Shown: piece after piece, positions 1 through 21,148 of the stretch
Position numbering within the stretch: position 1 is the first letter of the stretch
Layout of the letters: the number at the start of each line of letters is the position of its first letter
From: Gracilibacillus orientalis
Lineage (GTDB): Bacteria; Bacillota; Bacilli; Bacillales; Amphibacillaceae
Length of the DNA: 64,000 bases
Assembly: GCF_900114645.1 (NCBI RefSeq)
Contig: NZ_FOTR01000001.1
Coordinates: forward strand, 248,001 to 312,000
Direction of reading: 5' to 3'
The notes under the pieces: model-generated
Told to the model about the DNA's origin: nothing
The model's input: the letters and a program-made list of their open reading frames with translations, nothing else
Database searches by the model: none
Program-made: the position numbers and the translations under genes

Positions 1-47
1 TAAGCTGAGGCGCTTCCTCCGGCATATGGTAAACAAAATAATCTCAA
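1..47 (-). CDS. Type II thioesterase, N-terminal fragment (runs off the window)
   Basis: Reading leftward past the end of the sfp-like gene, a frame opens with TTG at 47 and encodes MRLFCLPYAGGSASA before the window ends. This is the characteristic beginning of external type II thioesterases of NRPS clusters (the SrfAD/GrsT kind, whose first strand reads FCxPYAGGSA). These enzymes clear misprimed or stalled 4'-phosphopantetheine arms of carrier proteins. A GGAGAAGGGG ribosome-binding stretch lies inside the last sfp codons, with its G-run ending about 8 bases before TTG, so translation is probably coupled to sfp. The active-site GxSxG lies outside the window. Identity rests on 15 residues plus context. 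Confidence 0.72.
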   Translation of the reverse strand, partial: MRLFCLPYAGGSASA

Positions 48-52
48 GATTA

Positions 53-787
53 TTACCCCTTCTCCTGTTGTAAATAAATATTATTAAAATGGCTAATTAA
101 TTCTTTTTGATCAACTGTTATAATATTTGGTTTTACAATATCCTTTCCAGAACAAACAGCAATTTTATATCCAGGTATTACATTATATTGAAACAGACTT
201 TTGTAGTAGTCATTCTGGTAGTTCCCATTAACTACAGAAATATTGCCTTCTAAAGATATATTTATAGAGAAATCTTTTAAGGAGAGCGATAATCCTAACC
301 CGCAACATTTAATATAACTCTCCTTCAAAGTCCATATTTCATAAAATTTATCTAATCTATTATTTGAATCACTATTAATATACTTACATTCTTCATTTGT
401 AAAAAAGGCAGTTGATATTTCTTCAACATTTAAAGGTTTAATCTCCTCAATATCACAACCAACATCATTATCATTAATTGCGCACATTACATAATTCCCG
501 GAATGGGAGATATTAAAATGAAAAGAAGGAAAGCCCTTAAGAGAAGGCTTTCCATACAGATTTTTTTCAAAATAAATTTCTTTATTTTCTATCCCTATTT
601 TTCCCATGATAAGATACCTGATGAGAACTTCTCCAACTGTTGTACGTAATTTGTCCTCAGATTTAATAAACCTTTGAACTCTTTTACTTTTTTCAGAGTC
701 CATTAGTGGATAAAGATTTGAAAGTTCCCCATCAGCTAAACTGGTGATTTTGACTAAGTATATATCCATAATGCTATTGAATAACAT
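53..787 (-). CDS. sfp: Sfp-type 4'-phosphopantetheinyl transferase
   Basis: A 244-residue enzyme, about the size of Sfp. It transfers 4'-phosphopantetheine from CoA to the conserved Ser of carrier-protein domains and so activates both NRPSs of this cluster. Visible family motifs are FNISHSG (about 91-97), GCDIEEI with Mg-binding Asp112 and Glu114, and WTLKESYIK with Lys155/Glu156. It starts only 2 bases after the hydrolase stop, so it belongs to the same leftward operon. Neither the first ATG nor the downstream ATG at 769 has a strong ribosome-binding site, so the exact start is uncertain and coupled translation is likely. Confidence 0.93.
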   Translation of the reverse strand: MLFNSIMDIYLVKITSLADGELSNLYPLMDSEKSKRVQRFIKSEDKLRTTVGEVLIRYLIMGKIGIENKEIYFEKNLYGKPSLKGFPSFHFNISHSGNYVMCAINDNDVGCDIEEIKPLNVEEISTAFFTNEECKYINSDSNNRLDKFYEIWTLKESYIKCCGLGLSLSLKDFSINISLEGNISVVNGNYQNDYYKSLFQYNVIPGYKIAVCSGKDIVKPNIITVDQKELISHFNNIYLQQEKG

Positions 788-789
788 TT

Positions 790-1614
790 TTATGAATTTT
801 TTGAGTTATCGAAAAAGAATTCCGAAATCATTTTAAAAAAAAGCTCTGGAGATTCCAGGTTAGCTAAATGTGCAGCATCAGGTATTGTAATCCTTTTAAC
901 AGAAGGAAGTTCTTTACTCATTAGCTCAGATATATCATGAAAATCTTGAACATCATACTTACCATTAATAATTAGTACAGGGACTCGAATATCTTTTATC
1001 TGTAAGATGTTATCTTCCGTTTCTATTTCTTCGCAAGGATGATCTGGTTCAGGCTTAGTTAAAGATTTTATCTGCATATCAATAACTAATTGTTTCACAT
1101 CTGAATTGATAAGTTCAGGGTCCCTATTTCTTAGTATCCATGTTTCATAGTTAAACTGTGCTGTTTCTTCTATTTTACCTTCTTGTAATAATTTTTCTTC
1201 TCCTTCTTCATATTCTTGGAGGTAAGACGAGTCTTCCCATCCACTTAAAGCTGGAGACAAAAGTGCTAAACTCAGACATTTTTCTGGGTTCTCTAGATAA
1301 AAATCAATAGCTATTTTCCCACCAAATGAAGCTGCTAAAATATGAGTATGGTTAATGTCTAGGTGTGTAAGAAGTTCATTAATAATATTACTATAAGAGT
1401 AATTTACTCCAGTGAAATCACTTGATCCATAGCCAGGAAGATCAAGCCTAACTACCCGATATTTTTCTGATAATAAGTGAAATTCTTTATCCCACATACG
1501 TGAATCTGCAATTCCAGCATGAAGTAATAATAAATTTTCACCAGTACCTTTTGAGTGAAAATAAATATTAGCTCCCGTAGCATTAAGAATCCCTTTTACT
1601 TCATTTGTTTGCAT
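790..1614 (-). CDS. Alpha/beta hydrolase of the NRPS cluster, candidate release enzyme
   Basis: A 274-residue alpha/beta-hydrolase fold protein. The nucleophile elbow is AASFGG with Ser96, so the first Gly of GxSxG is replaced by Ala. An oxyanion LLHAG loop lies at 30-34, the acid is in NGKYDV, and the histidine is in AAHLANLE near the C-terminus. It resembles the 3-oxoadipate enol-lactonase/MhpC type more than classical NRPS thioesterases. The upstream three-module NRPS ends in a carrier domain with no thioesterase, and this gene lies between it and sfp. A role in hydrolytic or cyclising release, or in tailoring, is inferred. A GGAGG site precedes the ATG by about 10 bases. Confidence 0.8.
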   Translation of the reverse strand: MQTNEVKGILNATGANIYFHSKGTGENLLLLHAGIADSRMWDKEFHLLSEKYRVVRLDLPGYGSSDFTGVNYSYSNIINELLTHLDINHTHILAASFGGKIAIDFYLENPEKCLSLALLSPALSGWEDSSYLQEYEEGEEKLLQEGKIEETAQFNYETWILRNRDPELINSDVKQLVIDMQIKSLTKPEPDHPCEEIETEDNILQIKDIRVPVLIINGKYDVQDFHDISELMSKELPSVKRITIPDAAHLANLESPELFFKMISEFFFDNSKNS

Positions 1615-1722
1615 AGTATACTAACCTCCACTTTATATTTATAAATAAATAATGAGCAATACTTAAAACATGAATAAGGTAAGGCTATCTCTATATAAGA
1701 AACGACCTCACATATAACTTGC

Positions 1723-4700
1723 TTATAATTTCAGTCTTTTTAATATACTCTCAGCACTTTCTCCCTTTTCCATCCTATTTAATAATTCAATAGCTTCATT
1801 TTCGTCTAACAATTCAATAGCAGCTATTAAATTATCCTTTGCTTCAATATCTTTCATAATAAACCTAGCTACTGACTCAACTGTTGGATTCTCAAAAAAG
1901 TCTCTAAATCCTAATGTGTAACTAAATTCTCTCTCAATTTCAATAATTAATTTATTAACAAGTAAAGAATGGCCACCTATATCAAAAAAGTTATTATTCA
2001 ATCCAACTTTGGATACCTCTAACAGTTTACCCATGATAGTAGATACTTGTTTTTCAATATCAGTTTTAGGTGCTACATATTCTAAATCCTGATTTAAATT
2101 ATCTATACTATCATTTGGTTTAGGTAATGCTGCACGATTAATTTTACCATTTGGAGTAAGAGGTAGTTTATCCATCCTTATAAAAAATGATGGAACCATA
2201 TAACTAGGTAACAGTTTCATAAGATAATCTTTAAATTGAATGTTTTCCATTTTTTCTTCGCTTACATAGTAACATACCAAACGATCTTGATTATTATGGT
2301 TGTTAGGAACCACCACACAATCACTAATGTTTTTATGTTTTCGTATTGCAAACTCAATTTCTGAAATTTCTATTCTAAATCCTCTTATTTTAACTTGATG
2401 ATCCAGTCTACCAAGGAACTGTATGCTTCCATCAGGTAAATATCTACATAAGTCACCAGATTTATAAAGCCTACCTCCTTTTTCACTAGAGAAAGGATCT
2501 GGTATAAATGACTTTGCTGTTTCTCGCGGATTATCAATGTATCCTCTGCCAACACTTATACCACCTATAAACAATTCACCTTTTACTCCGATTGGTACAG
2601 GTCTTAGAAAATCATCAAGAATATAAATTTTTATATTTGATAAGCGAAATCCTATTGGCAATGGAATAGGTTCTTGATCTATCCTTGTTGGAACAAAATA
2701 ATGTGTAACATCATCTGAACACTCTGTTGGCCCATATGCGTTAATAATAGGTATATGAGGAAAATTCTTATACCATTTTTCACAAATATCGTTAGGCAAG
2801 GCTTCCCCAGTAACTATTAAAAATCTTAAATTTGAAATCAAAACAGACTCATTTAAATCCAACACAGCTCTTAACAAAGAGGGAACCACTTCTAAAATGG
2901 TAGCATTAACTTTATTTGCTTCAGAGAATAAAGTTAATGGGTTCATTGCCACATCTTGGTTTACTATATGAACGTTTCCACCTGTTAAAAGACAAATAAG
3001 ATTTTGCCAAACAGAAATATCAAAAGATTGCGACGAATTTTGAATGATTGTATCCTTTTCAATATTTAGGTCTCTAATTTTAGCAAATAGATGATTTATC
3101 ATACCCTTTTGCTCAATCATAACTCCTTTTGGTTGGCCAGTAGAACCTGAAGTAAATATAACATAAGATAAGTCTGATTCTTTACCTAGATGGATTCTTT
3201 GTTCAACTAATGATGTATCAATACATTTAGTTTCTAACAAATCCTCAATATAAAGTATAGGTATTCCATTACTAATTTTTTCAACATCTTTAGCTAGAGA
3301 TTTTTCTGCAATAATAATGTCAGATTTACTTTGATCTAAAATCTGAGAAGCTCTAGCCTTAAGATAGTTAGGATCTATTGGTACATAAGCTGCTCTTGAA
3401 TGAAAGACACCAATCATAGACACTAAGAAATTTGTAGAGCGCTCTAAATATAAAGATACATGGCTTCCAACATTAATGTTATTTGCTATCAACTCAGCAG
3501 CTACTATACATGAGCGATTCCAAACTTCACTATAAGTTAGACTTTTTTCGTGATCGGACGCGCAAATTTTTTCTGAATGTTTAATAGCTGCGTTTTTAAG
3601 AAGTTGCGAGTATGTTTTGTCTGTAGGGAATTTATCTTCCGTTTGATTCCAATTCGTCACTACCTTTGCATAGGAGTTTCTATCCAACACGTCTATTTCA
3701 GATAATAATAAATTTTGATCGTAAGTAATGTCTTCTATAACTTTTTTGTAACTGTTGAAAAGGTTATTTATTGTACTTTCTTTATATAGACTGCTATCAA
3801 ATTCAATATTTACAACATAACCATCATCTCGTTCTTCTAATACAAACATCAAATCAAATTTGGCTGTATTGTTATGAATAGGCAGAGTCCTTACTTCCAC
3901 ATCAGGTAAGTCAATTTCTTTCATATTCATATTATTGAGAACAAACATAACCTGAAATAAAGGGTTTTGCTCCATATTTCTAACTGGGTGTAATGCTTCA
4001 ACAACCTTTTCAAACGGTACGTCTTGATTATTTAATGAATCTACAGTATCTTCTTTTACTCTTCTCAAAAACTCTTTAAAACTTGGGTTATCTCTGCCAT
4101 CTAGTTTCATAACCACCGTATTAACAAAATAACCAATTAATTCTTCGATAGCAGCATTCTTTCTTCCTAATACCGGTGAACCCACTGTTACAGCTTTCAT
4201 TCCTGAATACTTTTGAAGTAAAACACCAAAGGCACTTAACAGAAATACATATGGTGTCACACTATTTTCTTTACAAATTTCTTTAATAGTATCCTTAGAA
4301 ATCTCAGTCATTTTATAAGAAATATTCTTCCCTATATTTGACCAATCAAGCTTTCTTGGGAAATCACTTGGAATTTCTAGAGTCTCATTAAAGTCCTCTA
4401 GTTTTTCTTTCCAATAAGTTAACTGGTTGTTAAGCACCCCTGAACCAAGTAACCGTTTATGCCAATTGGCATAATCAGCAAATTGGAACTCTAATTTTGG
4501 AAGAGCATCCTGAGTCTTAAATGATTTATAATAGTAAGATACTTCTTCCATCAAAATTTTAATAGACCATTCATCTGAGATAATATGGTGCATAACAACC
4601 ATTAACTTGTAATGATTATCTGCCACTTCTAATAAAGTTAACTTAAATAAAGGCCCTTTATCAAAATTAAAACGCCTTCTTCCTTCTTCTAGCACTATAT

Positions 4701-7700
4701 CAGACCACGATTTATTCTCTACAATTTCTAAAGGGGTAGGTACTGAATTAAGTACCTTTTGATAGAATTCTCCTTCTTCTTCATAGAAAACGGTTCTAAG
4801 TACTTCATGTCTCGTTATGATTTGAGATATAGCACTTTGAAATGCCTCAATGTTTATGTTTCCGATAAACTCCATAGCACCAGAAACATTATAAGAATAA
4901 TCATCTGGCATGATTTTATTTATAAGTAATAGTTGCTGTTGTCCATAGGATGCTGGAATTCTCACGTTCCTATTAACCTTACTAATTTTAACCTGGGAAC
5001 TAGTACTATATTCATTTTTTATACTTTTTGCTAAATCTTTAATCGTAGGTTTCTCAAATATAATACGAATTGGAACAGAAAGATTTTTACATTGATTAAT
5101 TTTATTTATTACTTGAGTTGCAGTTAGCGAATAGCCCCCTATTTCAAAGAAATTAGATGTAGTACTTATATTATCAATATTAAGCACTTCACTTATAATT
5201 TTAGAAATCTCTATCTCTAATGGTGTAGTAGGAGCGACATATTTATCTGCTGTGTGAATAGTTGTTTTTGGATAAGGCAACAGCTTGTAGTCTATTTTCC
5301 CATTTAAAGACAAAGGTATCTTATCTATTTTTATGAAATTTGAAGGAACCATATAACCTGGTATTTTGTCACTTAGGATTGCTTTGAAATAATCTATATC
5401 TACCTCATTTTTTGATAGATAATAAGCAACTAGTCTTGTATGAGACTCTTGTTCATATGTCCAAACTACGCAATCATTTATCTCTTCCATTTGCATAATT
5501 GCCTGCTCAACCTCACCTAACTCAATTCGAAAACCACGAACCTTCACTTGCCTATCTTTTCGATTAATAAATTGATAAACACCGTTTCCAATATGACGAC
5601 ACAAATCTCCTGTTTTGTATAATCTCGAAGCGAGTCCATCAGAATATGAGTTTGGAATAAAACTAATTGCAGTCTGTTTAGGATTATTATAATATCCCCT
5701 ACCTACTCCCTCACCACTAATATAAAGTTCTCCAGGAACCCCATCAGGAACCAAATTAAGATGTTTATCCAATATATATATATTAGTATTTATTATTTTT
5801 TTACCAATAGGAACTGAAATTAAGTTCTCTGATTGATTTACAGGGACAAAATAATGAGTAACATCATCAGAACATTCCGTTGGACCATAAGCATTTACCA
5901 ATTTAACATCAGGGAATTTTCGATAAAATCTATTAGCTAAGTTAACAGGCAATACCTCTCCTGTTACAAGGAGATACTTTAATGCATTAGTATTAATACT
6001 AATATCCATATCTAATGCTACTCTTAGAAAAGAAGGTACAACTTCTAAAATATCGATCTCTTTATCAGCTTGATATTGAAACAATTTGATTGGGTTTGTA
6101 GATACCTCTTGATTAGTAATGTATACGCTTCCTCCTGTCAAAAGAGAAACTAAATTCTGCCATACAGAGATATCAAAACTTTGGGAAGCATTTTGTATAA
6201 TTTTATCGTCTTTTAATTCTAAATCTTCAATCTTAGAATAAAGATGATTTATCATGCCTTTTTGCTCCACCATAGCTCCTTTTGGTGTTCCTGTTGAACC
6301 AGAAGTAAATATAATATAGCTTAAATCCCTGGGTTTTCCTTCCTTAATAAACTGTAAAATCTCTAGATCAAATAACCCATCGGGTGTTGGAAGATCTTCA
6401 TAGTAAATTACTTTAATATCAGAATCAACTTGTTTGAAAATATCCGAAAACTTTCTTTCAGAAAGTACAACTTTGCATTTAATCTGACTTAATATATTGT
6501 TTATTCTACTTATAGGATAGTAAGGATCAATTGGGACGTATGCTCCACGTATATTGAAAGTACCTATTATTGAACTTAAAAAGCGACTTGACCTATCCAT
6601 AATAATGGGTAATATATCGCCTTGTTTTAGATCATTATCTAAAAGATATTTTGACACTTTTGCAGACTCATTCCATAAGTCTGTATATGTTAATATTCTT
6701 TCATCATCTTCAACTGCCATTTTATCTGCATGAATATTGGTTTTTTTGTAGAACAACTGAGAAAATGTTTGATCTAAAGGGATACTATCTAGTCTTGTGA
6801 AACTTTCCTGTAACAGGTATGATTTCTGTTTTTCAGGAATGACTGATATGGTATTAAGCTGATTATGTGGTTCTGATATACACGAATTAATGATTTGCTC
6901 AAAAACCTCAGACATTGATACGATGGTTTCTGTTTTAAATAAATTTGTATCATATTCAAAGTTTGCAATTAAGTTTCCATTTGCTTGTTCTTCTACAATA
7001 ACCATTAAATCAAACTTAGTAGAATAACTTTCTATATCTAAAGATTTAACCAATATATTTGGTAATTCTACTTCTTTAGTTGGTGTATTTTGTAGGACAA
7101 ACATTACCTGAAATAAACTACTATTATTGATATTTCTCTCGGGATTAATTGCTTGAACTACTTTCTCAAAAGGAACCTCTTGATTAGACATACTTTCGCT
7201 AATATCTTGTTTATTTTTTTCTAAATACTCATTAAAAGTTGGGTTATTTGAACCATCTAAAGAGATAGAAATGGTATTTACAAAATACCCAATTAAATCT
7301 TCAAGTGTAGATGCATTTCTATTAGCAACAGGAGTCCCAACTATAATTTTTTCATTCCCTGAGTATCGCTGTAACATTAGCCCAAAACAGGATATCAATA
7401 AAGAAAACATGGATGATTCTGATTTAAATGCATAGTCTTTCAATTTGGTAACAGTATCTTGATGTAAGGCAGTTATATGATGTAATCCCTTTCTATCTCT
7501 ACTAAACCCTCTAGGATAATCAGTAGGTAACTCCAGTGTTTTTGATGCTTTTTTAAATTTATTCACCCAGTATTTTATTTGATTATTGAATAGTTCACTG
7601 CTTTCTTGTTTCTTTTGCCATGCAGCATAGTCTCGATATTGAATATCCAAAGGTGCAAGACTATTTTTGTAGCTTTTTTCATCATACTGCTGATAATATT

Positions 7701-11295: not shown

Positions 11296-11415
11296 ATGTT
11301 TACACACCCTTTCCATAAAACAAATCATGTAAAAAAAACACTACTATTTCCCTTTCCTTACTTGTCTATAAGAACTTAGTTTTTTTCATAAAGTAAAAAT
11401 GTACAATATAAAAAC

Positions 11416-11438
11416 CACACCTACAAATTGTAGGTGTG
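11416..11438 (-). terminator. Intrinsic terminator between the two NRPS genes
   Basis: A perfect 10-bp stem (CACACCTACA / TGTAGGTGTG) with a 3-base loop is followed on the minus strand by GTTTTTAT, a typical rho-independent terminator. It is also flanked by a run usable in the opposite direction. It lies in the 174-base gap between NRPS-B (stop 11470) and NRPS-A (start 11295). Transcription from the mbtH-side promoter would have to cross it to reach NRPS-A, hydrolase and sfp, unless antiterminated or restarted. Confidence 0.85.
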
Positions 11439-11469
11439 ATTTTTATTTCTAATAGGAGCTCACTCTCTA

Positions 11470-14400
11470 TTAATTAGTCAAAGTAGTTAAGCACTTGTTA
11501 AGGGATTGAGAAAACTGCTCAAATACTTGGCGTATAGTATTTTCTGATAATTTATTTTCATACCAAGACATTATTATTTGAGTATTACCATCTAACCAAA
11601 TATCTACACGAAGCGGGAATTCAGTCTGAGCTATGCTTAAATTCATGTCCGCAAATGGATTGGAACTTATGAAATTATTATCATTCATAAGGTTAACACC
11701 TACTGGGTAATTATCAAATACGAGTATCGTATCATACAAGTCCTCTTTATTCTCTCTACCTATCATTCGTTTTATCTGATCTAAACCTACCTGTTCTCTT
11801 CCATCTGATTCTGTTAAATCATTACGTAGGCTATAAAATATCTCCTCTGTAGTTCTCTCTAGAGATAAGTCCATATAAATAGGTAATGTGTTAATAAACT
11901 GCCCTGGTACGTTTTCTAGATCAGCTAGCCCAAGGGACCTTCCTGACATTGTTACACCAAACATCACTTTATCTTCTTTATAGATGTCTTGCATTGTTTT
12001 TCCCCATGCAAATGAAATTAGTTCTGTTTTCGTTATACCTTCTTTACGAGAGAGTTCGGTTAGTTTTTCATTTATAGATTTATCCAACTGAAAAGATTCT
12101 TGTTTAAAACTTACTTTAGATGATACTTTTAATGACTTTTCCTCATTAAAAGTGTTCTTTCCAACAGTAGTTTTAATTTTCTCTTCCCAGTAATTTATTT
12201 TCTTATCTTTATCTAAATCGTTAATAATTTGGCAGCAATCTGAGAAACTTAAATCTTGGCATTTAACAGACAGTGGGCTACCTTCGCTAAAACTTTGATA
12301 TGCTCTAAAAAGTTCACGTCTGATTATATTCATAGACCATCCATCTAACAAAGCATAACAATTAAAGTGTAAAAATAATGTAAGTTCTTCGCTGATTTCT
12401 ATTAGGAAAATTCTCCAAATCGGTGCTTTACTTAGATCCATCTTTGAATGCCTGATCTCTTGAGACAATTTATTTATTTCTAATCTAATTCTGTGCTCAG
12501 AGTAATTACTCCAATCTAACTCAGATAGGGGCAGTTCTATTTCAGAGCGGAAGGATATTTTTATATTATTTTTATTCTTAGTGTTGAAATATGCTCTTAA
12601 AATTTCATATTTATCTATGAGATATGCATATGATTTAATAAAAGCTTCTTTGTTAAAATATCCTGGAATAAAGAACCCCGATTGGATATTATATAACCCA
12701 TTTAAAGGTTGCTCTTCCAATTGTTTAATTATGTGATTTTGCATTGGTAGTACAGGATATTCAATATCAGTTAGTGGCTCATTAAAGGTAGCTAGACTAT
12801 TCAAAATATCTGCTACTAATTTTTCATTTTTATCTTCATCTAAAACATAGAAACTTAATGTTGATGAAAGATCATCAGCATTTAATATTACAAATAGTTC
12901 AGGCTTCTCTTCTTTATTTAATTGTTCAAACTGCCCACGGCACCCTATTTTTAATGTTTTGTCGTTTTTATTACTTGTTCTATCTAAAAAAGATATATTC
13001 CAAGGTAGATTAGTATCATTAAAGAATTTACTTATCTTATTAACAGGTAGCTTTGTTTCTTGTTCAAATTTTATTCCCCGCTTAAAGTAACTAAATGTCT
13101 CCTTCTCATCGGGAGATTTTATATAACTTGCCCAATTAGCAAAGACCCTTTCGCTATTCTCTAGTACAAGAGTGTTACTTATATAACCTTCTATCAATTT
13201 CTTCATAGTAAACATAGAAGTTCGATCGGCTACCATTTGCGATATAGTTATATATAGCTTACTTTCTTCATTGTTGTTCTTAGAGCCGACATATAATGCA
13301 TGTACTGGAAATGGCTTATTTAAATTCATTAAGTCTTTTATATGTTGGAATTGTTCTTTTTCTGGTAAGGAAGCTTGTTCAGAAAAAACCAACTCTGCAG
13401 AGGTCTCATGATAGTACTGCGCAAAAAAGTTATCTTTCCTTATTATAAATAACTTAAATACATCCACTTTTGAAATGATTTCATTTAATATCTTCTTCAT
13501 TTTATCTTGACTCATAGAAGATGCTAATGGAACCTCAATAGTGTTTGTTGAATTCCATTGATTGGTTGCTAGTAAATATAATTGTTCTCCCGTAAATGAT
13601 ACGGAATTCACATTACTATTATCTACAATTACCTTAGCTAATTCATTAATTGTGGGATACTTAATAATATCTTTTAATTCTATTACAAATCTTGATCTCC
13701 TAAGTTCATTAACAACTTGAATGGCCTTGATAGAATCTCCACCCAATTCAAAGAAGCTTTTATTAACTTCTGCAACGTTACAATCCAATACTTCAGACCA
13801 TACATCACAAAGTAAAAACTCATTTTTTGTTTTTGGTGGAATGCTTAGTTCTTTATTCTCTTCCTTATTCACTACTAATGTAGGTAGACCTTTTCTATTA
13901 ACTTTGCCATTTGGAGATAATGGCATTTGTTCTAGCTCAACAAAGTACATTGGCACCATATAATATGGTAACTTATCTGCTAAATATCTTCTTAATTCAT
14001 TATTATTAATATCAGATTCTGAGGATTTCGTGTAATATGCTACAAGCTTTTGTTTTCCGTTTGGTTCTTTATAGACAGAAACGACTGCTGCATCTATCCC
14101 TGAAAATTGCTTTATTAAAGATTCAATCTCACCAGATTCGATTCTATATCCATCAATCTTAATTTGAAAATCCATTCTGCCTAATAATTCAAGAGTACCG
14201 TCTGAATTAAAACGAGCTAAATCACCTGTTCTATACATGCGAGCTCCAGGAATCCAATAAGGATCTGGAATAAATTTATCTGCCGTTAAAGCGGGTTGGT
14301 TTAAATACCCATATCCAACTCCTATTCCTCCGAGGCAAAGTTCTCCTGAAACTCCAACTGGTACAGGAAATCCATAATCGTCTATAATATATGCTCTTTG

Positions 14401-16863
14401 ATTTGCCATTGGTTTTCCATAAGGAATACTATTCCAATGACTTTCTGTTTTCTCTACTTCGTAAATAGTGGAATCCATAGAAACTTCAGTAGCTCCGCCT
14501 AAACTAATATATTGCATCTCCTTATTAAATTTACTTAATCTTTCTTGTAAATCTAATGGAATCCAATCTCCGCCTAGTAGGATTAATCTCATATTTAAAT
14601 GGATATTATCGCCACTTGATTCTAATTTTTCTATTAACAGTTTAAGTAACGCTGGGGCAGAATGCCATATAGAAATATTATATTTCTCGATGAGGTCAAG
14701 CCAAATTTCTGGATTTCTTTCCTCACTCTTACTTGGGAGTACGATTGCAGAACCAGCAGCTAGGACTCCAAATATATCAAATGCTGTCATATCAAAGCTA
14801 AGAGCAGAAATGGAAAGGAGTTTATCATTTTCGCCAATATTAAATTGATTAATAAAATCGAAAAAATTATTAATTCTTCCTCTATGATTTAAAATAACTC
14901 CTTTTGGTTTACCTGAAGTACCTGATGTATATATCACATAAAATAAATCATCTGGAGAAACATCTATAACTGGATTTTCAGTAGATAATTCCCAGGCAAA
15001 CTCATCTATATTTAATATTTGAGCATTTGTATTCTTAAATTTCTCTAAATACTCCGTAGAGGTAATGACAACTGGCACTTGAGAATCATTGATCATATAA
15101 TCTATCCTGTCATCTGGCAAAATAGGATCAATGGGTAGGTAAGCAGATCCAGATTTTACTATACCTAGTAAAGAACTAACCAAATTAACGGATCGATTTA
15201 AACAGACTCCTATTGGTTTTCTAGATAAATGCATATCTATTAACCACCAAGCAATTTGATTTGCTTTTTTCAAAAGCTCTGCACGAGAAACTTTTCCGTT
15301 ACTAAGTAAAATCGCATCAGCGTTTGGATCTTTCTTTACCCATTTCTCTATAAATTTATGAATTGGCCATTCTGACTTAGAAAAGTCAACTTCTGTTGTA
15401 TTCCAAAGAGTAGTAATTTTTGTTCTTTCTTCTTGCTCAAGGATATCAATATTACTTACTTTCTTATTTAGTAAGTTTTCTTCTGTAATGACATTTAAAT
15501 AACAGTTAAGGAAATTCTTAATTGTTTCTTTTTTAAATAGCTCAGTATCATATTCAAAAGAAATAATTAACTCATCCTGCGATTCAACAATAGAGATGTC
15601 TAAATCAAATTTGGAGGTTCCATTGTGGAATTCAAGAGGTGTTATCTCACCATCTCCAAATTGTAATGCTTCAAAATTAGAAACTTGATAAACTAACATA
15701 ACTTGAAAGAGCGGATTCAGACTAAGATTTCTTTTAAGTCCTTTCATCTCTACTATTTTTTCAAAAGGTACATTTTGATGAGTAAATGCATCAAGAACTG
15801 TCTCACTACTTCTTTGTACTAACTCACTAAAAGAATCATTCTCTTTAATTGGAGTTTTTAACACTACCGTATTTGCAAAATATCCAGCAATCTCATCAAA
15901 AACACTAAGTTTTCTATTTCCAACTTGAGTGCCAATAATAATTTCACTATTGCCAGTCAATTTATGAAGCAACAAATTCAAACAAGTATATAAAACCGCA
16001 AATTTTGTAGTTTTAAAATCACGAGCAATGTTATTAATACCTTTAAGACTTTCTGATGGAATAGTCTTTAAAACCCTATCTCCTATACGATTACTCTCGT
16101 TCTTTCTAGCGTAATCTTTAGGTAAATCGATAGGGTCTATCTCACCTTCCAATTGTTGTCTCCAATAGTTGAGTGAATTTTTATATTCTTCAGAAGCAAA
16201 ATAATCTGTCTCCCAAATAGCGAAATCAATATAGTTATATTCATCAGCAGTTTCCAGAGTGTACTCATTAGATTTCATTTCGTAAAGGTTTTTCAAATCA
16301 TTAATTAGTATTTCAGTCGTTCTTCCGTCAATCATAATATGATGCGAAATAAAAAGAAAAACATGTTTATCCTCACCACTCTTCAGAAGAAAAAAACGAA
16401 CTGGTGGCTTCTCTAGTTCTAGAGGCTTATGAGTCTCTTCAAGTATAAAATTAATTATCCTATTATCAACGTCATGCATATTTGTATCTTTGTTAAAATC
16501 CACATACTTGTAGTCAATTTCAGTTGACTTATTAATTCTTTGAATTAGTTTTGAGTCTTGTGTTTCGTGATAAGAAGTACGTAGTATTTTATGTTTGTTA
16601 ATCAGCAAATGTAAGCATGCTTCAAATCTTTGCGGATCAATCTTAGCATTAATTTCTATCGCAGTAGGAACATTATAAAAACCACTATTAGGATTAAGCT
16701 TTTGCATATAATATAATCTTTGCTGTGTTGAGGATAAAATTCCTTCACTTAAATTTTGGGGTTGGATATCATTAGAAACATTGTTATTTCTAGCTGATAG
16801 TTTCTTCAACAATGCCTCCTTTGCACTTGATAACCCCTTATTAGATACAATACTATTAGACAT
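11470..16863 (-). CDS. One-module nonribosomal peptide synthetase C-A-T with tandem degenerate C-like C-terminus
   Basis: 1797 residues, preceded by GGGAGGGA. An N-terminal condensation domain (HHIMIDGR near 173) suggests an acylated or otherwise supplied starter. The adenylation domain has YTSGTSGKPKG near 645 and the SLGGATE variant of the A5 motif. A carrier domain GGDSIKA lies near 1040. Manual pocket reading gives D-M-F-H-L-G-L-M-D, closest in feel to Ser-type codes but not assignable. After T come about 270 residues resembling the N-lobe of a C domain in which HHxxxDG reads SQMVADR, then a fuller C domain whose motif reads NCYALLDGWS. Both lack the catalytic second His. They may be structural, docking or epimerisation-like domains. 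It probably acts before the three-module NRPS. Confidence 0.94.
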   Translation of the reverse strand: MSNSIVSNKGLSSAKEALLKKLSARNNNVSNDIQPQNLSEGILSSTQQRLYYMQKLNPNSGFYNVPTAIEINAKIDPQRFEACLHLLINKHKILRTSYHETQDSKLIQRINKSTEIDYKYVDFNKDTNMHDVDNRIINFILEETHKPLELEKPPVRFFLLKSGEDKHVFLFISHHIMIDGRTTEILINDLKNLYEMKSNEYTLETADEYNYIDFAIWETDYFASEEYKNSLNYWRQQLEGEIDPIDLPKDYARKNESNRIGDRVLKTIPSESLKGINNIARDFKTTKFAVLYTCLNLLLHKLTGNSEIIIGTQVGNRKLSVFDEIAGYFANTVVLKTPIKENDSFSELVQRSSETVLDAFTHQNVPFEKIVEMKGLKRNLSLNPLFQVMLVYQVSNFEALQFGDGEITPLEFHNGTSKFDLDISIVESQDELIISFEYDTELFKKETIKNFLNCYLNVITEENLLNKKVSNIDILEQEERTKITTLWNTTEVDFSKSEWPIHKFIEKWVKKDPNADAILLSNGKVSRAELLKKANQIAWWLIDMHLSRKPIGVCLNRSVNLVSSLLGIVKSGSAYLPIDPILPDDRIDYMINDSQVPVVITSTEYLEKFKNTNAQILNIDEFAWELSTENPVIDVSPDDLFYVIYTSGTSGKPKGVILNHRGRINNFFDFINQFNIGENDKLLSISALSFDMTAFDIFGVLAAGSAIVLPSKSEERNPEIWLDLIEKYNISIWHSAPALLKLLIEKLESSGDNIHLNMRLILLGGDWIPLDLQERLSKFNKEMQYISLGGATEVSMDSTIYEVEKTESHWNSIPYGKPMANQRAYIIDDYGFPVPVGVSGELCLGGIGVGYGYLNQPALTADKFIPDPYWIPGARMYRTGDLARFNSDGTLELLGRMDFQIKIDGYRIESGEIESLIKQFSGIDAAVVSVYKEPNGKQKLVAYYTKSSESDINNNELRRYLADKLPYYMVPMYFVELEQMPLSPNGKVNRKGLPTLVVNKEENKELSIPPKTKNEFLLCDVWSEVLDCNVAEVNKSFFELGGDSIKAIQVVNELRRSRFVIELKDIIKYPTINELAKVIVDNSNVNSVSFTGEQLYLLATNQWNSTNTIEVPLASSMSQDKMKKILNEIISKVDVFKLFIIRKDNFFAQYYHETSAELVFSEQASLPEKEQFQHIKDLMNLNKPFPVHALYVGSKNNNEESKLYITISQMVADRTSMFTMKKLIEGYISNTLVLENSERVFANWASYIKSPDEKETFSYFKRGIKFEQETKLPVNKISKFFNDTNLPWNISFLDRTSNKNDKTLKIGCRGQFEQLNKEEKPELFVILNADDLSSTLSFYVLDEDKNEKLVADILNSLATFNEPLTDIEYPVLPMQNHIIKQLEEQPLNGLYNIQSGFFIPGYFNKEAFIKSYAYLIDKYEILRAYFNTKNKNNIKISFRSEIELPLSELDWSNYSEHRIRLEINKLSQEIRHSKMDLSKAPIWRIFLIEISEELTLFLHFNCYALLDGWSMNIIRRELFRAYQSFSEGSPLSVKCQDLSFSDCCQIINDLDKDKKINYWEEKIKTTVGKNTFNEEKSLKVSSKVSFKQESFQLDKSINEKLTELSRKEGITKTELISFAWGKTMQDIYKEDKVMFGVTMSGRSLGLADLENVPGQFINTLPIYMDLSLERTTEEIFYSLRNDLTESDGREQVGLDQIKRMIGRENKEDLYDTILVFDNYPVGVNLMNDNNFISSNPFADMNLSIAQTEFPLRVDIWLDGNTQIIMSWYENKLSENTIRQVFEQFSQSLNKCLTTLTN

Positions 16864-16876
16864 AAAAATCCCTCCC

Positions 16877-18208
16877 TTAGTACCCTGGTATAGGATGTTG
16901 AGCAGTCAATTCTCTTACTTCTTTTTTAATGGATTGAACAAAACTCTCTGAAATAGAGAACTCTTTTTCTGAAACCGGAATAATTTCATTGATTACTCTA
17001 TCAAAAATATCAATAATTTTTTCAATGTTATGTTCAGTAAATTGTCTATATGAAATAGTATTAGTTCCTAATCTTATTCCCCTTGATACAAATGCTGCTG
17101 TAGTATCACCTGGCACTCTATTTTTATTAACTATAATGTCACACCTTTCAAGAGCTTTTTCAGTTACATATCCTGACATCTTTTTATTAATTAAATCGAT
17201 TAAAACAATATGTGTATCGGTACCATCAGATACAACTTTATATCCTTTTTTCTTCAAACCATCAGCTAGAGTTCTTGCATTTCTTTGAATATTTGTAGCT
17301 AAATTTTTGAATTCTTCTGTACTATTAAACTTTAAAGAATGTGCCAATGCTGAAATTCTATTCATGACTGGAGCACCTTGGAAGTGAGGAAAAATTGCCC
17401 TTTGTATTAACCTTTCTAATGACATGTCGCCGTTTGGTGATTTAGCAGCCTCTGTCAACTTACCTCCTAAAATAAGTGCCCCACGTGGTCCATATAATTG
17501 TTTATGAGTACAAGTAGTTGTGAAATGTGCCAAATCAATTGGACTTGGATGTTTTCCAGCAATAATAAGACCTGCAATATGTGAAATATCCGCCAATAAA
17601 TATGCTCCTACTTCCATCGCAATCTCATTAAATTTCTCAAAATTAACTTGACGCGCATAAGCGGTAGTTCCACAAATAATTAATTTCGGTTTATGTTTTC
17701 TCGCTAAGGAAAAAACTTCTTCATAGTCAATTATTCCATCTGCATTAGTATGATAAGAAATGGAGTTATAGCCCTTTCCTGAAAATGAAGCTGGAGCTCC
17801 ATGAGTAAGATGGCCACCACTGCTTAAATCCATACCTAACAATGTATCTCCAGGCTGCAGAATAGCACTAATTAGGCTAAGATTAGCAGTTGATGCAGCA
17901 TGTGCTTGAACATTTGCAAAAGTTGCATTGAATACAGATTTTGCTCTTTCAATAGCAATTCTTTCAATTTTATCGACGTTGATACATCCAGCATGATATC
18001 TCGCTCCTGGATAGCCTTCGGCAGTTGTGTTAATAGCTGCTGTACATTGACTAAACAACACATTAGGATTAGCGACACTGGATGATGCTACTAGTACAAG
18101 TTGTTCTTTTTGTCTATTTTGTTCATTAAGAAGAGCACTAGCAAGTTCAGGATCATAATCCTCCATTAACTTTAAACCAGATTTTAAAACCGTTGACATA
18201 TTTTCCAT
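16877..18208 (-). CDS. SHMT-like PLP enzyme of the NRPS cluster (catalytic Glu replaced)
   Basis: 443 residues from ATG 18208, which follows AAAGAGAGTG; the frame is open to an earlier ATG at 18259 without a good site. The fold-type I PLP core of serine hydroxymethyltransferase is intact: GGHLTHG with His133, ADISHIAG with Asp207/His210, THKQLYGPRGA with PLP Lys236, and GIRLGT. The folate-chemistry signature LIASEN reads LVASSS, so the catalytic Glu is Ser43, and the YY pair is Tyr71-His72. Loss of that Glu in true SHMT abolishes THF-dependent transfer but leaves aldol chemistry. A specialised aldolase or transaldolase making a beta-hydroxy amino acid for the NRPS is inferred. The gene ends 13 bases before NRPS-B. 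Confidence 0.88.
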   Translation of the reverse strand: MENMSTVLKSGLKLMEDYDPELASALLNEQNRQKEQLVLVASSSVANPNVLFSQCTAAINTTAEGYPGARYHAGCINVDKIERIAIERAKSVFNATFANVQAHAASTANLSLISAILQPGDTLLGMDLSSGGHLTHGAPASFSGKGYNSISYHTNADGIIDYEEVFSLARKHKPKLIICGTTAYARQVNFEKFNEIAMEVGAYLLADISHIAGLIIAGKHPSPIDLAHFTTTCTHKQLYGPRGALILGGKLTEAAKSPNGDMSLERLIQRAIFPHFQGAPVMNRISALAHSLKFNSTEEFKNLATNIQRNARTLADGLKKKGYKVVSDGTDTHIVLIDLINKKMSGYVTEKALERCDIIVNKNRVPGDTTAAFVSRGIRLGTNTISYRQFTEHNIEKIIDIFDRVINEIIPVSEKEFSISESFVQSIKKEVRELTAQHPIPGY

Positions 18209-18775
18209 TGAAATCACTCTCTTTAAATTATTTAGTATTAACAAAATGCATAACATCATATACTTACATTACTTTATATAGCATGACGAATTATAATATT
18301 AAGTACACACCTGAAATTTTCCTAAATAGCCTTTAACGACATAGTATAAATTGTAGATAACCATATAAACACTACACAGAGAACGGGTATGAATTATAGT
18401 CATCTTTTCACATTGGAAAGAGCACAAAAGACGCTAGAGCGAACCGCTAGCTCCATGGAACATGCTATCAAAACGCTTATTAAGCAAGATACCAAAATAC
18501 TGACAGCAACGTGTATTTTATGAACCCTTATTCTTCTTGTCAACGTTGTAGCAACGAGAATGAGAATGACATTTTTAAAAAATCTTTCCTTAGAAAACGG
18601 ATTCAGGAAATGGTGAGTTAGAAGAAGCTCAATCATTTAATTAACAATAGACCAAAAAATGTTTAAATTGAAAAACTACACACGAAGCGTTTTAGGAAAA
18701 ACTAGTGATAATTTTTTTAAAAAACTAACCTTTATTAATAGCTAAAGAAATAATCACAGTTTTAATCTGCACCGC
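18209..18775. other. Intergenic stretch between SHMT-like gene and IS3 copy
   Basis: 567 bases with no convincing gene. On the minus strand a TATAAT-like -10 occurs around 18290-18296, which could give the SHMT/NRPS genes their own promoter, but no good -35 is paired with it. On the plus strand an ATG at 18389 opens 44 codons, then after one stop a further 30 codons in the same frame end at 18616. The two parts read like a decayed protein that I cannot identify. Confidence 0.4.
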
Positions 18776-18806
18776 CCCCTGTAAGTAGACAACTAAAAAA
18801 AGTAAT

Positions 18807-19607
18807 TTATGCTGCGGCTTTTTCCCGATATTCTGTCGGGGAAAGATCGCTATGTTTTTCCTGTAACCTTTCGGTGTTATAAAAATTGATGTATTTTTTA
18901 ATCATTCGTTCGGCTTGCTCATATGTTTTTGGGTGCTCCAAATACAGCTTCTCCGTTTTCAAATGAGAAAAGAAGCTCTCTATGCATGCATTGTCGTAAC
19001 AGTTGCCTCGTCTGGAATGGCTTCCGTTCAAACGCATTCTCTTCAAACGTTTCGCATAAGCGTTTGAAGTGTATTGAAATCCCTGGTCAGAGTGAAACAG
19101 GGTCCCCTTGTAAAGCGGTTGAGACGCCAAGTTTGCCAATGTATCCAGCACTAAATTCAGGTCGTTCCGTTCTGAAAGCTGCCAGGCCACAATTTCATTA
19201 TTATGCAGGTCCAAAACTGCAGAAAGATAGACAAACCGGTCATTTATGCGAACATACGTAATAGCGGTCACAAGCTTCTGATATATTTTTTCTACGTAGA
19301 AATTCTGTTTCAGTACGTTTTTGAAAAGTACAGATCCTCTTCTGCCGTAGAAAGGACGTTTCTTACGAATGACAGAACGAATCCCCAAATCTCGCATCAG
19401 TCTTCTTGTACGCTTATGATTCACAAGTAGCCCTTCTTTGCGCAAAACTCGTGTGACACGCTTGTACCCATAATACGGGCGCTCCTTATGAATTGCCAGA
19501 ATATGTTCTTTGAAGAGCGCTTCTTCCTGGCGCTGCACCTGTGGTGGACGGCACAGAATCCATTTATAGTAACCAGCTTTCGATACTTCCGCTATTTTAA
19601 ACAGCAA
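18807..19607 (-). CDS. IS3-family transposase OrfB, catalytic Asp lost
   Basis: 266 residues with an rve integrase core of the IS150 group. The expected first catalytic motif WxTDIT reads LVTAITYV, so the first Asp of the DDE triad is Ala115. The second Asp (HSDQGFQYTS, Asp174) and the Glu (ACIESFFSHLKTE, Glu210) are present. It would normally be made as an OrfAB fusion by frameshifting, but orfA is broken. The copy is predicted to be immobile on its own. Confidence 0.9.
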   Translation of the reverse strand: MLFKIAEVSKAGYYKWILCRPPQVQRQEEALFKEHILAIHKERPYYGYKRVTRVLRKEGLLVNHKRTRRLMRDLGIRSVIRKKRPFYGRRGSVLFKNVLKQNFYVEKIYQKLVTAITYVRINDRFVYLSAVLDLHNNEIVAWQLSERNDLNLVLDTLANLASQPLYKGTLFHSDQGFQYTSNAYAKRLKRMRLNGSHSRRGNCYDNACIESFFSHLKTEKLYLEHPKTYEQAERMIKKYINFYNTERLQEKHSDLSPTEYREKAAA

Positions 19608-19660
19608 TTTTAATGGATGTTTGGAACGGATTTGATGGATTAATTCGAACCTTTTGGTCT

Positions 19661-19964
19661 TTACGACTTCTCCTTCCCGTGAAGATTTGGATTTTGCTGT
19701 TTTAGATAATCCACCTGCGCTGTCAAATACGCGTTTTCTTCTTCCAGACTGGAGAATTTCTTTCGATTCCAGTGCCCTCGCTGATCCTCGAATGAAACTC
19801 CCGATTGCGCTTTTTTAATCCACTCCGCAATTTGTGCATCGCTTTTCACGCCGAATCTTTCTCAAAGTTGACTATATGATCAACCTTCTTCCAGTTTCCA
19901 ACCGAACAACTTCCCGTTTTAGTTCAGGTGTGTATTGTGTAAAATGTAGCCCTTTTTTTGCCAT
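19661..19964 (-). pseudogene. IS3 OrfA, frameshifted
   Basis: A good start (ATG 19964 after GGAGGGGA) gives MAKKGLHFTQYTPELKREVV and then hits stops. The downstream part (KSDAQIAEWIKKAQSG, then a leucine-zipper-like LEEENAYLTAQVDYLKQQN) is in another frame. This is the helix-turn-helix half of an IS150-type transposase, interrupted by at least one frameshift and one stop. Confidence 0.8.
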
Positions 19965-20091
19965 AGAAAAATCCCCTCCAAGTAAGACTGTTAAGAACAT
20001 CATAGCACGTTCTCTTTTTTTATCAGTCTACTTAAAGGGGATAATACCAATCTTTAAGAAGAGGTTTAGTTTTTAATATTGTTAATTAATT

Positions 20092-20271
20092 TTACCTAAT
20101 GCTCTTGGGGCGCATATCAACCCATTGCTCTTCAATATAATCTAAGCAATCGGCTTTATTTCCAGTAAAACTAGCACTTTTCCAACCTACTGGAATTTCC
20201 CTATTAATCGGCCAAATTGAATATTGTTCTTCATTATTAACAACCACGATAAATTCTAGTAATTCATTCAT
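20092..20271 (-). CDS. MbtH-like NRPS chaperone
   Basis: A 59-residue protein starting at ATG 20271, after AAGGATG and directly following an in-frame TAG. It carries the family pattern throughout: [31 protein letters not shown], including the Trp residues that pack against adenylation domains. MbtH-like proteins bind the A-domain N-terminal subdomain and stimulate or stabilise amino-acid activation. As the first gene after the divergent promoter region it would head the NRPS operon, now separated from the SHMT-like gene by the IS3 copy and about 570 extra bases. Confidence 0.95.
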
Positions 20272-20372: not shown

Positions 20373-20385
20373 TTAATATGTTTCT

Positions 20386-20401
20386 AACATATTAATATGT
20401 T
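20386..20401. promoter_or_regulatory. Perfect 16-bp palindrome in the NRPS leader, overlapping a second hairpin
   Basis: AACATATTAATATGTT is a perfect palindrome. Its left half also pairs with an upstream copy (TAATATG at 20374-20380 with CATATTA at 20388-20394, loop of 7), so two structures exclude each other. It lies about 90 bases downstream of the predicted start of the mbtH-NRPS transcript. It may be a dimeric repressor operator or an RNA switch; nothing in the sequence decides between these. Confidence 0.45.
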
Positions 20402-20482
20402 CCCAAAATCTAACTTAACGTGCCGAAACAACGATTAAGTATATTTGGTGCATGATTTTAGAATATTTTTACTATGTTAATT

Positions 20483-20511
20483 ATTGTAATATGATTTTTT
20501 TTGAAAAGCAA
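20483..20511 (-). promoter_or_regulatory. Sigma-A-type promoter for the mbtH/NRPS operon
   Basis: TTGCTT (20511-20506) and TACAAT (20488-20483) are separated by 17 bases on the minus strand. A start near 20476 would give a leader of about 205 bases before mbtH, unusually long and containing the hairpin and palindrome listed separately. Confidence 0.55.
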
Positions 20512-20524
20512 GTTTTTTAAATAT

Positions 20525-20552
20525 TTTACTATCCTTTAAAAAAATGTAATAA
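20525..20552 (+). promoter_or_regulatory. Possible promoter for the LoaP-type gene
   Basis: TTTACT (20525-20530), a 16-base spacer and TAATAA (20547-20552) lie about 70 bases before the loaP start. The region is very AT-rich, so chance matches are common. Confidence 0.3.
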
Positions 20553-20620
20553 TTTAGCATGTGAAACATCACTTATTACCAAAATATAAATTAATTTGTA
20601 AAAAAGGGTGGTTTTAATTA

Positions 20621-21148
20621 ATGACTTGGCATGCACTTTTTGTAGAAAGTGGTAAAGAAGAATTAGTACAAACATATTTAGAGCTTAACTTTAAAAAATC
20701 TAATTTATTGTCAATAATACCTAAAAGAAAGGTTCCTGAAAAAAAAGGTGGAGTTATAAAACATGTTAAAAAGAAGTTATTTCCTGGTTATATCCTCATT
20801 CAAACTAATATGGACAGATATACATATAATAAGATCCGTAACATACCAAAAATACATCGAGTATTAAATACTGGAGTTACTTATTCTACTCAACAAGGGT
20901 TTTATATTACTAAACTAGAAGATAATGAAATAAATTTTATTTCAGAACTTTTAAATGAGGATGGAATAATAGAATATTCACAAGTTTGCATAAATAACTC
21001 CATAGTAGATGTTATATCCGGTCCACTATTTGGTATGGAACATTTAATAAGAAAGGTGGATAAACGGAAAAACAGAGCAAAACTTCAATTTGATATTAGA
21101 GGAAAAGAGATGAAATTTGAAGTTGGGATAGAAATAAGTAATAATTAG
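20621..21148 (+). CDS. loaP: NusG paralogue, LoaP-type antiterminator
   Basis: 175 residues, start ATG after AAGGGTGG. The N-terminal NGN domain begins MTWHALFVESGKEE and includes FPGYILIQT. The C-terminal KOW domain has VDVISGPLFGMEHLIRKVD, then KNRAKLQF and VGIE. Housekeeping NusG is encoded beside secE and rplK, which are absent here. LoaP-family specialised NusG proteins are known from Bacillus, where they allow long antibiotic operons to be transcribed through terminators. This gene is divergent from a 20-kb NRPS operon that has a long structured leader and an internal terminator, so cluster-specific antitermination is the likely role. Family placement is by motif and context. Confidence 0.85.
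   Translation: MTWHALFVESGKEELVQTYLELNFKKSNLLSIIPKRKVPEKKGGVIKHVKKKLFPGYILIQTNMDRYTYNKIRNIPKIHRVLNTGVTYSTQQGFYITKLEDNEINFISELLNEDGIIEYSQVCINNSIVDVISGPLFGMEHLIRKVDKRKNRAKLQFDIRGKEMKFEVGIEISNN

What the first reader, a model, noticed from the sequence alone, without database searches (positions are those of the whole stretch)
1..21148. Unrecognised four-module NRPS cluster with its own LoaP, MbtH, Sfp and SHMT-like enzyme
Sequence shows C-A-T(+C-like) followed by three C-A-T modules, no built-in thioesterase, a stand-alone hydrolase, a type II thioesterase start, MbtH, Sfp and a LoaP-type antiterminator. I know no described peptide pathway with this gene set and order. A tetrapeptide-like product with Asn at position 2 and two identical residues at positions 3 and 4 is inferred.
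Basis: partly seen in the sequence, partly recalled or inferred. Interest (0 to 1): 0.85.

Follow-up and report, generated by a model that had tools for sequence, protein, structure and literature searches.

The report
Self-protecting prodrug peptide antibiotic cluster
The window holds one half of a gene cluster that probably builds a small, positively charged peptide antibiotic in an inactive, lipid-capped form and uncaps it only during export; it is a new variant of a known type of pathway whose predicted product can be looked for directly.

Summary
On the same contig it continues for another 14.4 kb beyond window position 1. The whole unit has six modules, not four: NRPS3 (starter C-A[Asn]-T-E), NRPS4 (C-A-T), NRPS1 and NRPS2. 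It also holds a fused ClbP-like peptidase/ABC exporter and SbnA/SbnB/SbnI-like genes for 2,3-diaminopropionate (Dap). The fusion keeps the D-Asn-reading residues described for ClbP. The SHMT is not housekeeping: it carries the TAEG..RYH motif of PbzB/FmoH/AsmD-type enzymes that make alpha-substituted serines. Best reading: an N-acyl-D-Asn-capped precursor from which roughly Ile-(alpha-substituted Ser)-Asn-Dap-Dap is released on export. LoaP is genuine, and a UUCG hairpin, the published type of LoaP target, lies in the MbtH leader. The prodrug half (loader plus fusion) recurs in other Bacillota; its pairing with a PbzB-type SHMT was seen in none of 29 named prodrug loci, within flanks of up to 10 kb. 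The product is predicted, not shown. New variant of a known kind; interest 0.5.

The parts
1..47 (-). First 15-16 codons of the type II thioesterase (whole gene C14:247361-248047 = L011:7361-8047, 228 aa)
   Evidence: PF00975, 145 bits
53..787 (-). Sfp-type 4'-phosphopantetheinyl transferase, 244 aa
   Evidence: PF01648
790..1614 (-). Stand-alone alpha/beta hydrolase, 274 aa; candidate product-releasing hydrolase (inferred)
   Evidence: PF00561
1723..11328 (-). NRPS2, 3201 aa: C(LCL)-A(Asn)-T-C(LCL)-A(Dap/Dab-type)-T-C(LCL)-A(Dap/Dab-type)-T
8593..9501 (-). NRPS2 A domain 1 core, pocket code DLTKIGEVGK (Asn; meaning of codes recalled)
5410..6336 (-). NRPS2 A domain 2 core, pocket code DIWELTADDK (Dap/Dab type)
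2257..3183 (-). NRPS2 A domain 3 core, pocket code DIWEITADDK (Dap/Dab type)
11470..16863 (-). NRPS1, 1797 aa: C(LCL)-A-T(GGDS)-X-C(DCL-like, catalytic His lost)
13903..15348 (-). NRPS1 A domain, pocket code DMFHLGLMDK: the Ser-type H278/D331 are kept (recalled), and the GGATE/LLGGDW form is like that of A domains next to other BGC SHMTs
12859..13611 (-). Domain X of NRPS1: weak, degenerate half condensation-type domain in the place where an E domain would sit; no relative found
11473..12849 (-). Terminal DCL-like C domain of NRPS1 with HHxxxDG changed to NCxxxDG
16877..18259 (-). PbzB/FmoH-type serine hydroxymethyltransferase, 460 aa (TAEG..RYH motif)
18807..20003 (-). IS3-family element (orfB 266 aa; orfA split over two short frames, by eye) inserted between MbtH and SHMT
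20092..20271 (-). MbtH-like protein, 59 aa, first gene of the operon
20413..20440 (-). 11-bp hairpin with a UUCG loop in the MbtH leader; candidate LoaP binding site
   Evidence: the hairpin type is from PMC12691694
20621..21148 (+). LoaP antiterminator, 175 aa, divergent from the operon

Best explanation
A LoaP-controlled NRPS pathway that makes a small cationic peptide as an N-acyl-D-asparagine prodrug. NRPS3 (starter C-A-T-E, outside the window) builds a fatty-acyl-D-Asn cap; NRPS4 adds a hydrophobic residue (Ile-like). NRPS1 adds an alpha-substituted serine (2-hydroxymethylserine or alpha-methylserine) made by the neighbouring PbzB-type SHMT. NRPS2 adds Asn and two diaminopropionates, the latter made by SbnI/SbnA/SbnB-like enzymes. 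The chain is freed in trans (alpha/beta hydrolase, with the type II thioesterase for repair). The fused ClbP-like peptidase/ABC exporter carries the inactive precursor out and cuts off acyl-D-Asn on the outer face of the membrane, so that the active peptide appears only outside the producer. Shown by sequence: domain order, domain types, Asn pockets, D-Asn peptidase residues, SbnA membership, SHMT subclass, LoaP membership. Inferred: order N3-N4-N1-N2, exact monomers, release step, antibiotic activity, LoaP acting on this operon.
For: Loader: NRPS3's first domain scores 571 bits with a starter-C profile built without it, against 227 for LCL; its last domain scores 507 with the E profile against at most 81 for the others; NRPS4's C domain scores 495 as DCL against 172 for LCL, as expected after a D residue. 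NRPS3's A domain code is DLTKVGEVGK. Peptidase: best PDB hits are full-length ClbP, aligned over both the catalytic and transmembrane parts. The equivalents of E92, S95, S/T188, H/N257, N331, W460 and W466 are all kept (roles from PMC9889268, passages; positions assigned by eye from the alignment), as are K98 and Y186 (roles recalled). The loader and the fusion stand side by side in named Bacillota: with Sfp and TEII in Anaeromonas (loader in two frames), a Tissierellales MAG and, with one gene between, Clostridium frigidicarnis; with SbnA and SbnB in Chengkuizengella. Dap: SbnA 383 bits over its cut-off of 350; SbnB 305, just under its cut-off of 327; SbnI-like 47, far under 350, with SbnI and free serine kinase as its best PDB hits. 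SHMT: TAEG..RYH motif, clade with five other SHMTs at support 1.000. In 4 of these 5 loci an NRPS frame is the direct neighbour; in the fifth one gene intervenes. LoaP.
Against: No product is known. NRPS1's tail (X and a C domain without the catalytic His) does not fit a clean assembly line. The SbnB-like protein is just under NCBI's cut-off and the SbnI-like one far under. The IS3 element lies inside the presumed operon and could stop expression from the LoaP leader. The LoaP hairpin was not found in the leaders of four relatives that also carry LoaP. The meaning of A-domain codes is recalled; DIWE-type codes are, to my memory, reported for both Dab and Dap. Stand-alone peptidases without an NRPS locus nearby also keep the D-Asn residues, so these alone do not prove the pathway.
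Confidence: 0.8

Rival explanations
1. Same prodrug machinery, but NRPS1 is the last synthetase (order N3-N4-N2-N1) and its terminal C domain, or a polyamine partner, releases the chain as an amide, as terminal C domains do for putrescine-ended peptides.
For: NRPS1 ends in a C domain, which is odd for an internal synthetase; neither NRPS1 nor NRPS2 has a thioesterase. A terminal-putrescine pathway is reported in PMC10587159 (search listing and start of abstract only).
Against: The terminal C domain has lost HHxxxDG (NCxxxDG); no polyamine gene was seen among the cluster genes scanned; gene order NRPS1-NRPS2 favours N1 before N2.
Confidence: 0.25
2. One reading: a free-standing four-module pathway (NRPS1 then NRPS2) making a tetrapeptide X-Asn-Y-Y; the upstream genes belong to another pathway.
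For: NRPS1 and NRPS2 are adjacent and together hold four modules.
Against: Apart from the IS3 element, the genes from MbtH to SbnI-like are on one strand with short gaps; G+C is 0.30-0.31 against 0.35-0.38 in the flanks, and IS21 remnants lie outside both ends. NRPS1 starts with an LCL-type, not a starter-type, C domain (350 against 190 bits). In some relatives Sfp and TEII sit beside NRPS3. NRPS2's two Dap-type pockets fit the upstream Sbn-like genes.
Confidence: 0.08
3. A decayed or silent cluster: NRPS1's tail is eroding and the IS3 insertion cuts the operon, so no product is made.
For: Degenerate X and C domains; IS3 between MbtH and SHMT.
Against: All NRPS, peptidase, Sbn-like and SHMT frames are open; a promoter-like site (11 of 12) lies between the IS and SHMT at 18515-18543, though such matches are not above chance in number.
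Confidence: 0.15

Closest known systems
N-acyl-D-Asn prodrug NRPS pathways with ClbP/ZmaM-type peptidases (edeine, zwittermicin, paenilamicin, amicoumacin, xenocoumacin, colibactin; list from PMC9889268, passages)
   Same: Starter C-A(Asn)-T-E loader, membrane D-Asn peptidase with the same specificity residues, ABC domain fused as in the long form of such proteins; SbnA-like genes in 8 of 29 related loci.
   Different: Here combined with a PbzB-type SHMT and an NRPS1 with a degenerate X-C tail; the SHMT was in none of 29 named prodrug loci within the fetched flanks of up to 10 kb. I did not align the named antibiotics' own clusters.
PbzB / FmoH / AsmD-type SHMT pathways (benzobactins, JBIR-34/35, ashimides)
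   Same: SHMT with TAEG..RYH instead of YAEG..RYY beside an NRPS; NRPS1's A domain has the GGATE form seen next to three of the other SHMTs, and the paper places PbzB's partner A domain in the Cys clade.
   Different: No anthranilate or acyl-ligase genes here; NRPS1 starts with an ordinary C domain, and the pocket keeps the Ser-type H278 and D331.
Staphyloferrin B genes sbnA/sbnB/sbnI (L-Dap supply)
   Same: SbnA over NCBI's cut-off, best PDB hits SbnA; SbnB-like and SbnI-like neighbours.
   Different: Feeds an NRPS; no siderophore synthetase seen among the cluster genes scanned.
LoaP-controlled difficidin/macrolactin operons of Bacillus velezensis
   Same: LoaP gene beside a large biosynthetic operon; UNCG-type hairpin in the leader (PMC12691694, passages).
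   Different: NRPS rather than PKS operon; no intrinsic terminator found in the leader or on the operon's strand between 1500 and 21400 by the simple scan.

Membership tests
N-acyl-D-Asn prodrug NRPS pathway | Loading NRPS of starter-C, Asn-type A, T and E domains | tested here: met
   DLTKVGEVGK pocket; C typed starter and last domain typed E with leave-one-out profiles. The reading of the code and of the E motifs is recalled.
N-acyl-D-Asn prodrug NRPS pathway | ClbP-type peptidase with D-Asn determinants E92, S/T188, N331, W466 | tested here: met
   determinants from PMC9889268 (passages). Two other S12-family proteins in L063 and L066 lack them. But seven stand-alone peptidases keep them too; two of these neighbourhoods were read (G366, G182) and held no NRPS like ours, so the residues alone do not prove a pathway role.
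N-acyl-D-Asn prodrug NRPS pathway | Acylated precursor accumulates when the peptidase is blocked | not testable with these tools
   Needs LC-MS.
PbzB-type SHMT | TAEG..RYH in place of YAEG..RYY | tested here: met
   (TAEGYPGARYHAGC against YAEGYPGRRYYGGC in own GlyA); motif from PMC10098953 section 11.
PbzB-type SHMT | Makes an alpha-substituted serine in vitro | not testable with these tools
   Enzyme assay needed; I know no sequence mark that tells 2-hydroxymethylserine from alpha-methylserine.
SbnA/SbnB L-Dap pathway | SbnA-type synthase and SbnB-type dehydrogenase over NCBI cut-offs | tested here: inconclusive
   SbnA met (383.5 against 349.95); SbnB 305 against 326.9, just under. Adjacent genes; SbnI-like third gene far under its cut-off.
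LoaP regulator | NF033641 over cut-off | tested here: met
   193.7 against 125 bits.
LoaP target operon | UNCG hairpin in the 5' leader | tested here: met
   11-bp UUCG hairpin, 0 of 300 Markov resamplings of the leader; not compared with the dfn hairpin's own sequence, which I did not have; binding not tested; absent from seven leader stretches of four LoaP-bearing relatives by the same scan.
Edeine-type cluster | Edeine gene set (recalled) and high identity | not tested
   No annotated edeine cluster was fetched; edeine's EdeB has an SbnI-like domain (PMC9641203, passages), but I did not compare sequences.

The most novel reading that the evidence does not exclude
A new class of translation-targeting or otherwise cytotoxic cationic peptides that join an alpha,alpha-disubstituted serine to two diaminopropionates and are made as D-Asn prodrugs. 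In NRPS1 the E domain's place is taken by a shrunken domain X with no known relative, because the loaded monomer has no alpha-hydrogen and cannot be epimerised; X and the His-less C domain would then be remodelled parts with a new role, such as handing the quaternary residue to NRPS2.
Probability: 0.2. Interest if true: 0.75.

Novelty: new variant of a known kind. Interest (0 to 1): 0.5.

Why it matters
Prodrug NRPS pathways with D-Asn caps have yielded several antibiotics and a genotoxin. This cluster predicts a compact, checkable product (m/z 535.28 or 519.29 with a C14-acyl-Asn by-product at 343.26) that pairs two rare monomer supplies. It also suggests that in NRPS loci with the TAEG..RYH type of SHMT, the A domain beside it is tuned to quaternary serines, which would help predict such residues from sequence.

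Tried and rejected
Considered and rejected: housekeeping role of the SHMT (own GlyA sits elsewhere at C23, 44% identical, and lacks the TAEG..RYH motif). Composite transposon (the two IS21 remnants share no DNA similarity at E 1e-3). Free-standing tetrapeptide pathway. S. epidermidis plasmid cluster as a relative of this one: it shares the SHMT type, and with anthranilate synthase and phenylacetate-CoA ligase genes it looks benzobactin-like. SHMT as an L-threonine transaldolase: NCBIfam fluorothreonine transaldolase scores only 73 bits against a cut-off of 650.

Led nowhere: genome-contig scan with NRPS1's tail; plasmid scans with the X region, with window 1-21148 DNA and with the IS3 stretch, and with the fusion protein, which gave only partial matches, the 15 listed to the ABC half; phylum search with the NRPS1 tail, 7 of 398 genomes incl. 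own at E 1e-25, matches only to the C-domain part at 22-26% identity, two candidates scored per genome; AlphaFold on the tail without alignment, mean pLDDT 33, not used; literature for A-domain codes, one unrelated paper; literature search with the PDB code 7QCW, none; PMC9040887 for SHMT, none. A first version of the code script took pocket columns 299/301 one off and was corrected. I took one SbnB hit in G817 for the L049 locus; it lies on another contig, and of what I fetched there L086 and L087 were not analysed. Profile-profile comparison gave X no sure fold: 11% at best, with the starter-C profile.
Full report
What is there. The window is C14:248001-312000 of a 4.6-Mb genome. The window edge falls inside the operon. 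On the same strand it continues with the thioesterase (C14:247361-248047), NRPS3 of 1494 aa (C-A-T-E), a 1028-aa protein with a beta-lactamase-family domain and an ABC exporter domain, NRPS4 of 1087 aa (C-A-T), and genes for SbnA-like, SbnB-like and SbnI-like proteins down to C14:233609. The genome has nine condensation-domain matches, eight over Pfam's cut-off; all nine lie in this cluster. G+C is 0.31 (window 1-18259) and 0.30 (upstream part), against 0.35 and 0.38 in the flanks. IS21-family remnants lie outside both ends, but are not similar in DNA.

The prodrug half. Profiles of condensation subtypes were built from relatives and scored leaving out the tested sequence. NRPS3 begins with a starter-type C domain (571 bits against 227 for LCL), ends with an E domain (507 against at most 81), and NRPS4 begins with a DCL domain (495 against 172). 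The loader's pocket code is DLTKVGEVGK, read as Asn (code meanings are recalled). The next gene product hits full-length ClbP best, over catalytic and membrane parts. PMC9889268 (passages) treats S95A as the inactive mutant, S188, H257 and N331 as D-Asn contacts, E92 as the residue that orients N331, and W466 as essential; position 188 is Ser or Thr and 257 His or Asn in prodrug peptidases. Our protein has E92, S95, T188, N257, N331, W460 and W466 by alignment, positions assigned by eye. Of 29 named loci found by a scan of genome contigs with the fusion's membrane part, 23 show the full set in one frame, one has Asn at 188 (L069), L046 has it in two pieces, L051 has only the membrane part in frame, and L062, L067 and L068 gave no row. 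An Asn-type loader lies in the fetched flank of 13 of the 29, SbnA in 8 and LoaP in 4. Sfp-TEII-NRPS3-fusion stand in a row in Anaeromonas gelatinilytica (NRPS3 in two frames) and a Tissierellales MAG, and with one gene between TEII and NRPS3 in Clostridium frigidicarnis. So this half is a known kind of module.

Diaminopropionate. SbnA is over NCBI's cut-off (383 against 350); SbnB is a little under (305 against 327); the SbnI-like protein scores 47 against 350 but has SbnI and free serine kinases as best PDB matches. Two of NRPS2's pockets are DIWELTADDK and DIWEITADDK, which I recall as Dab/Dap codes. A related code, DVWEINADDK, stands in the Polycladospora coralii cluster, which has SbnA, SbnB and an SbnI-like gene; but the same code also occurs in five named loci (L057, L058, L059, L061, L071) without SbnA within the fetched flanks. 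No Dab synthesis gene was seen among the cluster genes scanned. Dap at both places is the better reading, not proven.

The SHMT. It is 44% identical to the genome's own GlyA, and none of 60 relatives has a second close copy. PMC10098953 (abstract, passages and sections 10-11) describes PbzB, FmoH and AsmD type enzymes with TAEG..RYH in place of GlyA's YAEG..RYY; PbzB makes 2-hydroxymethylserine, and the paper cites such enzymes for alpha-methylserine. The window's SHMT reads TAEGYPGARYH. Of the plasmid matches (251 records) I read six loci: H1, H3, H4, H5, H6 and H9. The first five (L084, L014, L013, L085, L095) join our SHMT in one clade (support 1.000) apart from six GlyA-type ones, H9 among them; four of the five read TAEG..RYH, L014 reads RYY. 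An NRPS frame is the direct neighbour in L014, L084, L085 and L095 (the last two are unannotated, frames read by script); in L013 one gene intervenes. In 397 genomes of the order only the own genome and G172 had a match at E 1e-112; G172 resembles the S. epidermidis locus. In 398 phylum genomes the two further matches are GlyA-type by their motifs. Up to four candidates per genome were scored in these two searches. The best PDB match is 7qcw, perhaps PbzB; the paper prints 7QWZ, so I do not equate them. NRPS1's pocket, DMFHLGLMDK, keeps H278 and D331 of Ser pockets (recalled) with W239F and S301G, which fits a larger serine.

NRPS1's tail. After the T domain (GGDS, the form recalled for T domains that precede E domains) come domain X (about 250 aa) and a C domain. 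X has one weak condensation match in Pfam, 20.7 bits against a cut-off of 30.6; it scores 9-11 bits with starter, E and LCL profiles and under 1 with DCL, and profile-profile comparison gave 11% probability at best, so its origin is not certain. The last C domain scores 200 as DCL and 104 as LCL, and has NCxxxDG in place of HHxxxDG. X found no relative in the fetched loci, plasmids or, at the strict limit of 1e-25 and with two candidates scored per genome, in 398 phylum genomes. I read T-X-C as a former T-E-C. A quaternary serine cannot be epimerised, which would explain the loss; this is inference. The structure model was too poor to use.

Regulation. LoaP is over its cut-off. PMC12691694 (passages) reports that LoaP binds a UNCG hairpin in its target leaders. 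The 349-base leader between LoaP and MbtH holds an 11-bp UUCG hairpin at 20413-20440 (-): 0 of 300 first-order Markov resamplings had one as good by the set limits, but seven leader stretches from L047, L064, L049 and L051 had none. In the whole window, both strands, the scan gave five such hairpins, this one among them. The dfn hairpin's own letters were not available for comparison.

Verdict. Six modules, D-Asn prodrug logic, Dap and a quaternary serine: a new variant of a known kind. No paper with this combination turned up in the listings of searches, in a library that lacks most subscription journals.

Noticed in passing
G366:C1:1834345-1835910 (L023), also L025-L031: Stand-alone ClbP-like peptidases in 7 of 397 genomes of the order (two candidates scored per genome) keep the D-Asn determinants (7 complete rows, an eighth in two pieces). 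The G366 copy is 82% identical to the peptidase half of our fusion, stops where the ABC part begins, follows a gene that looks ArsR-like by eye, and has no frame like our NRPSs in the 80 kb read.
   Followed up: partly
G819:C28:29068-31155 and 62788-64344 (Polycladospora coralii; L051, L092): A cluster with an Asn-type loader, LoaP, SbnA, SbnB and an SbnI-like gene, in which the exporter's frame lacks the peptidase half while a separate 518-aa peptidase lies about 32 kb on: the two halves of the fusion seem to be split here.
   Followed up: partly
L013:4698-23408 (S. epidermidis plasmid NZ_CP070059.1) and G172:C1:2515-2545 kb: Benzobactin-like cluster (PbzB-type SHMT near an NRPS with the same second pocket code in both; in L013 also a YcaQ-type glycosylase, anthranilate synthase and phenylacetate-CoA ligase genes) on a staphylococcal plasmid and in a chromosome of the window's order.
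   Followed up: partly
window 18807-20003: IS3-family element between MbtH and SHMT; orfB is open, orfA lies in two short frames.
   Followed up: partly
L009:13649-14922 and window 21384-22449: Two sets of IS21-family remnants outside both ends of the cluster, not alike in DNA.
   Followed up: partly
L009:9202-10110 (-): APH-family phosphotransferase gene about 5.5 kb beyond the last Sbn-like gene, past the IS21 remnants; could be unrelated.
   Followed up: no
L046, Clostridium punense 7934-11926: Peptidase/exporter gene in two frames in this record.
   Followed up: no
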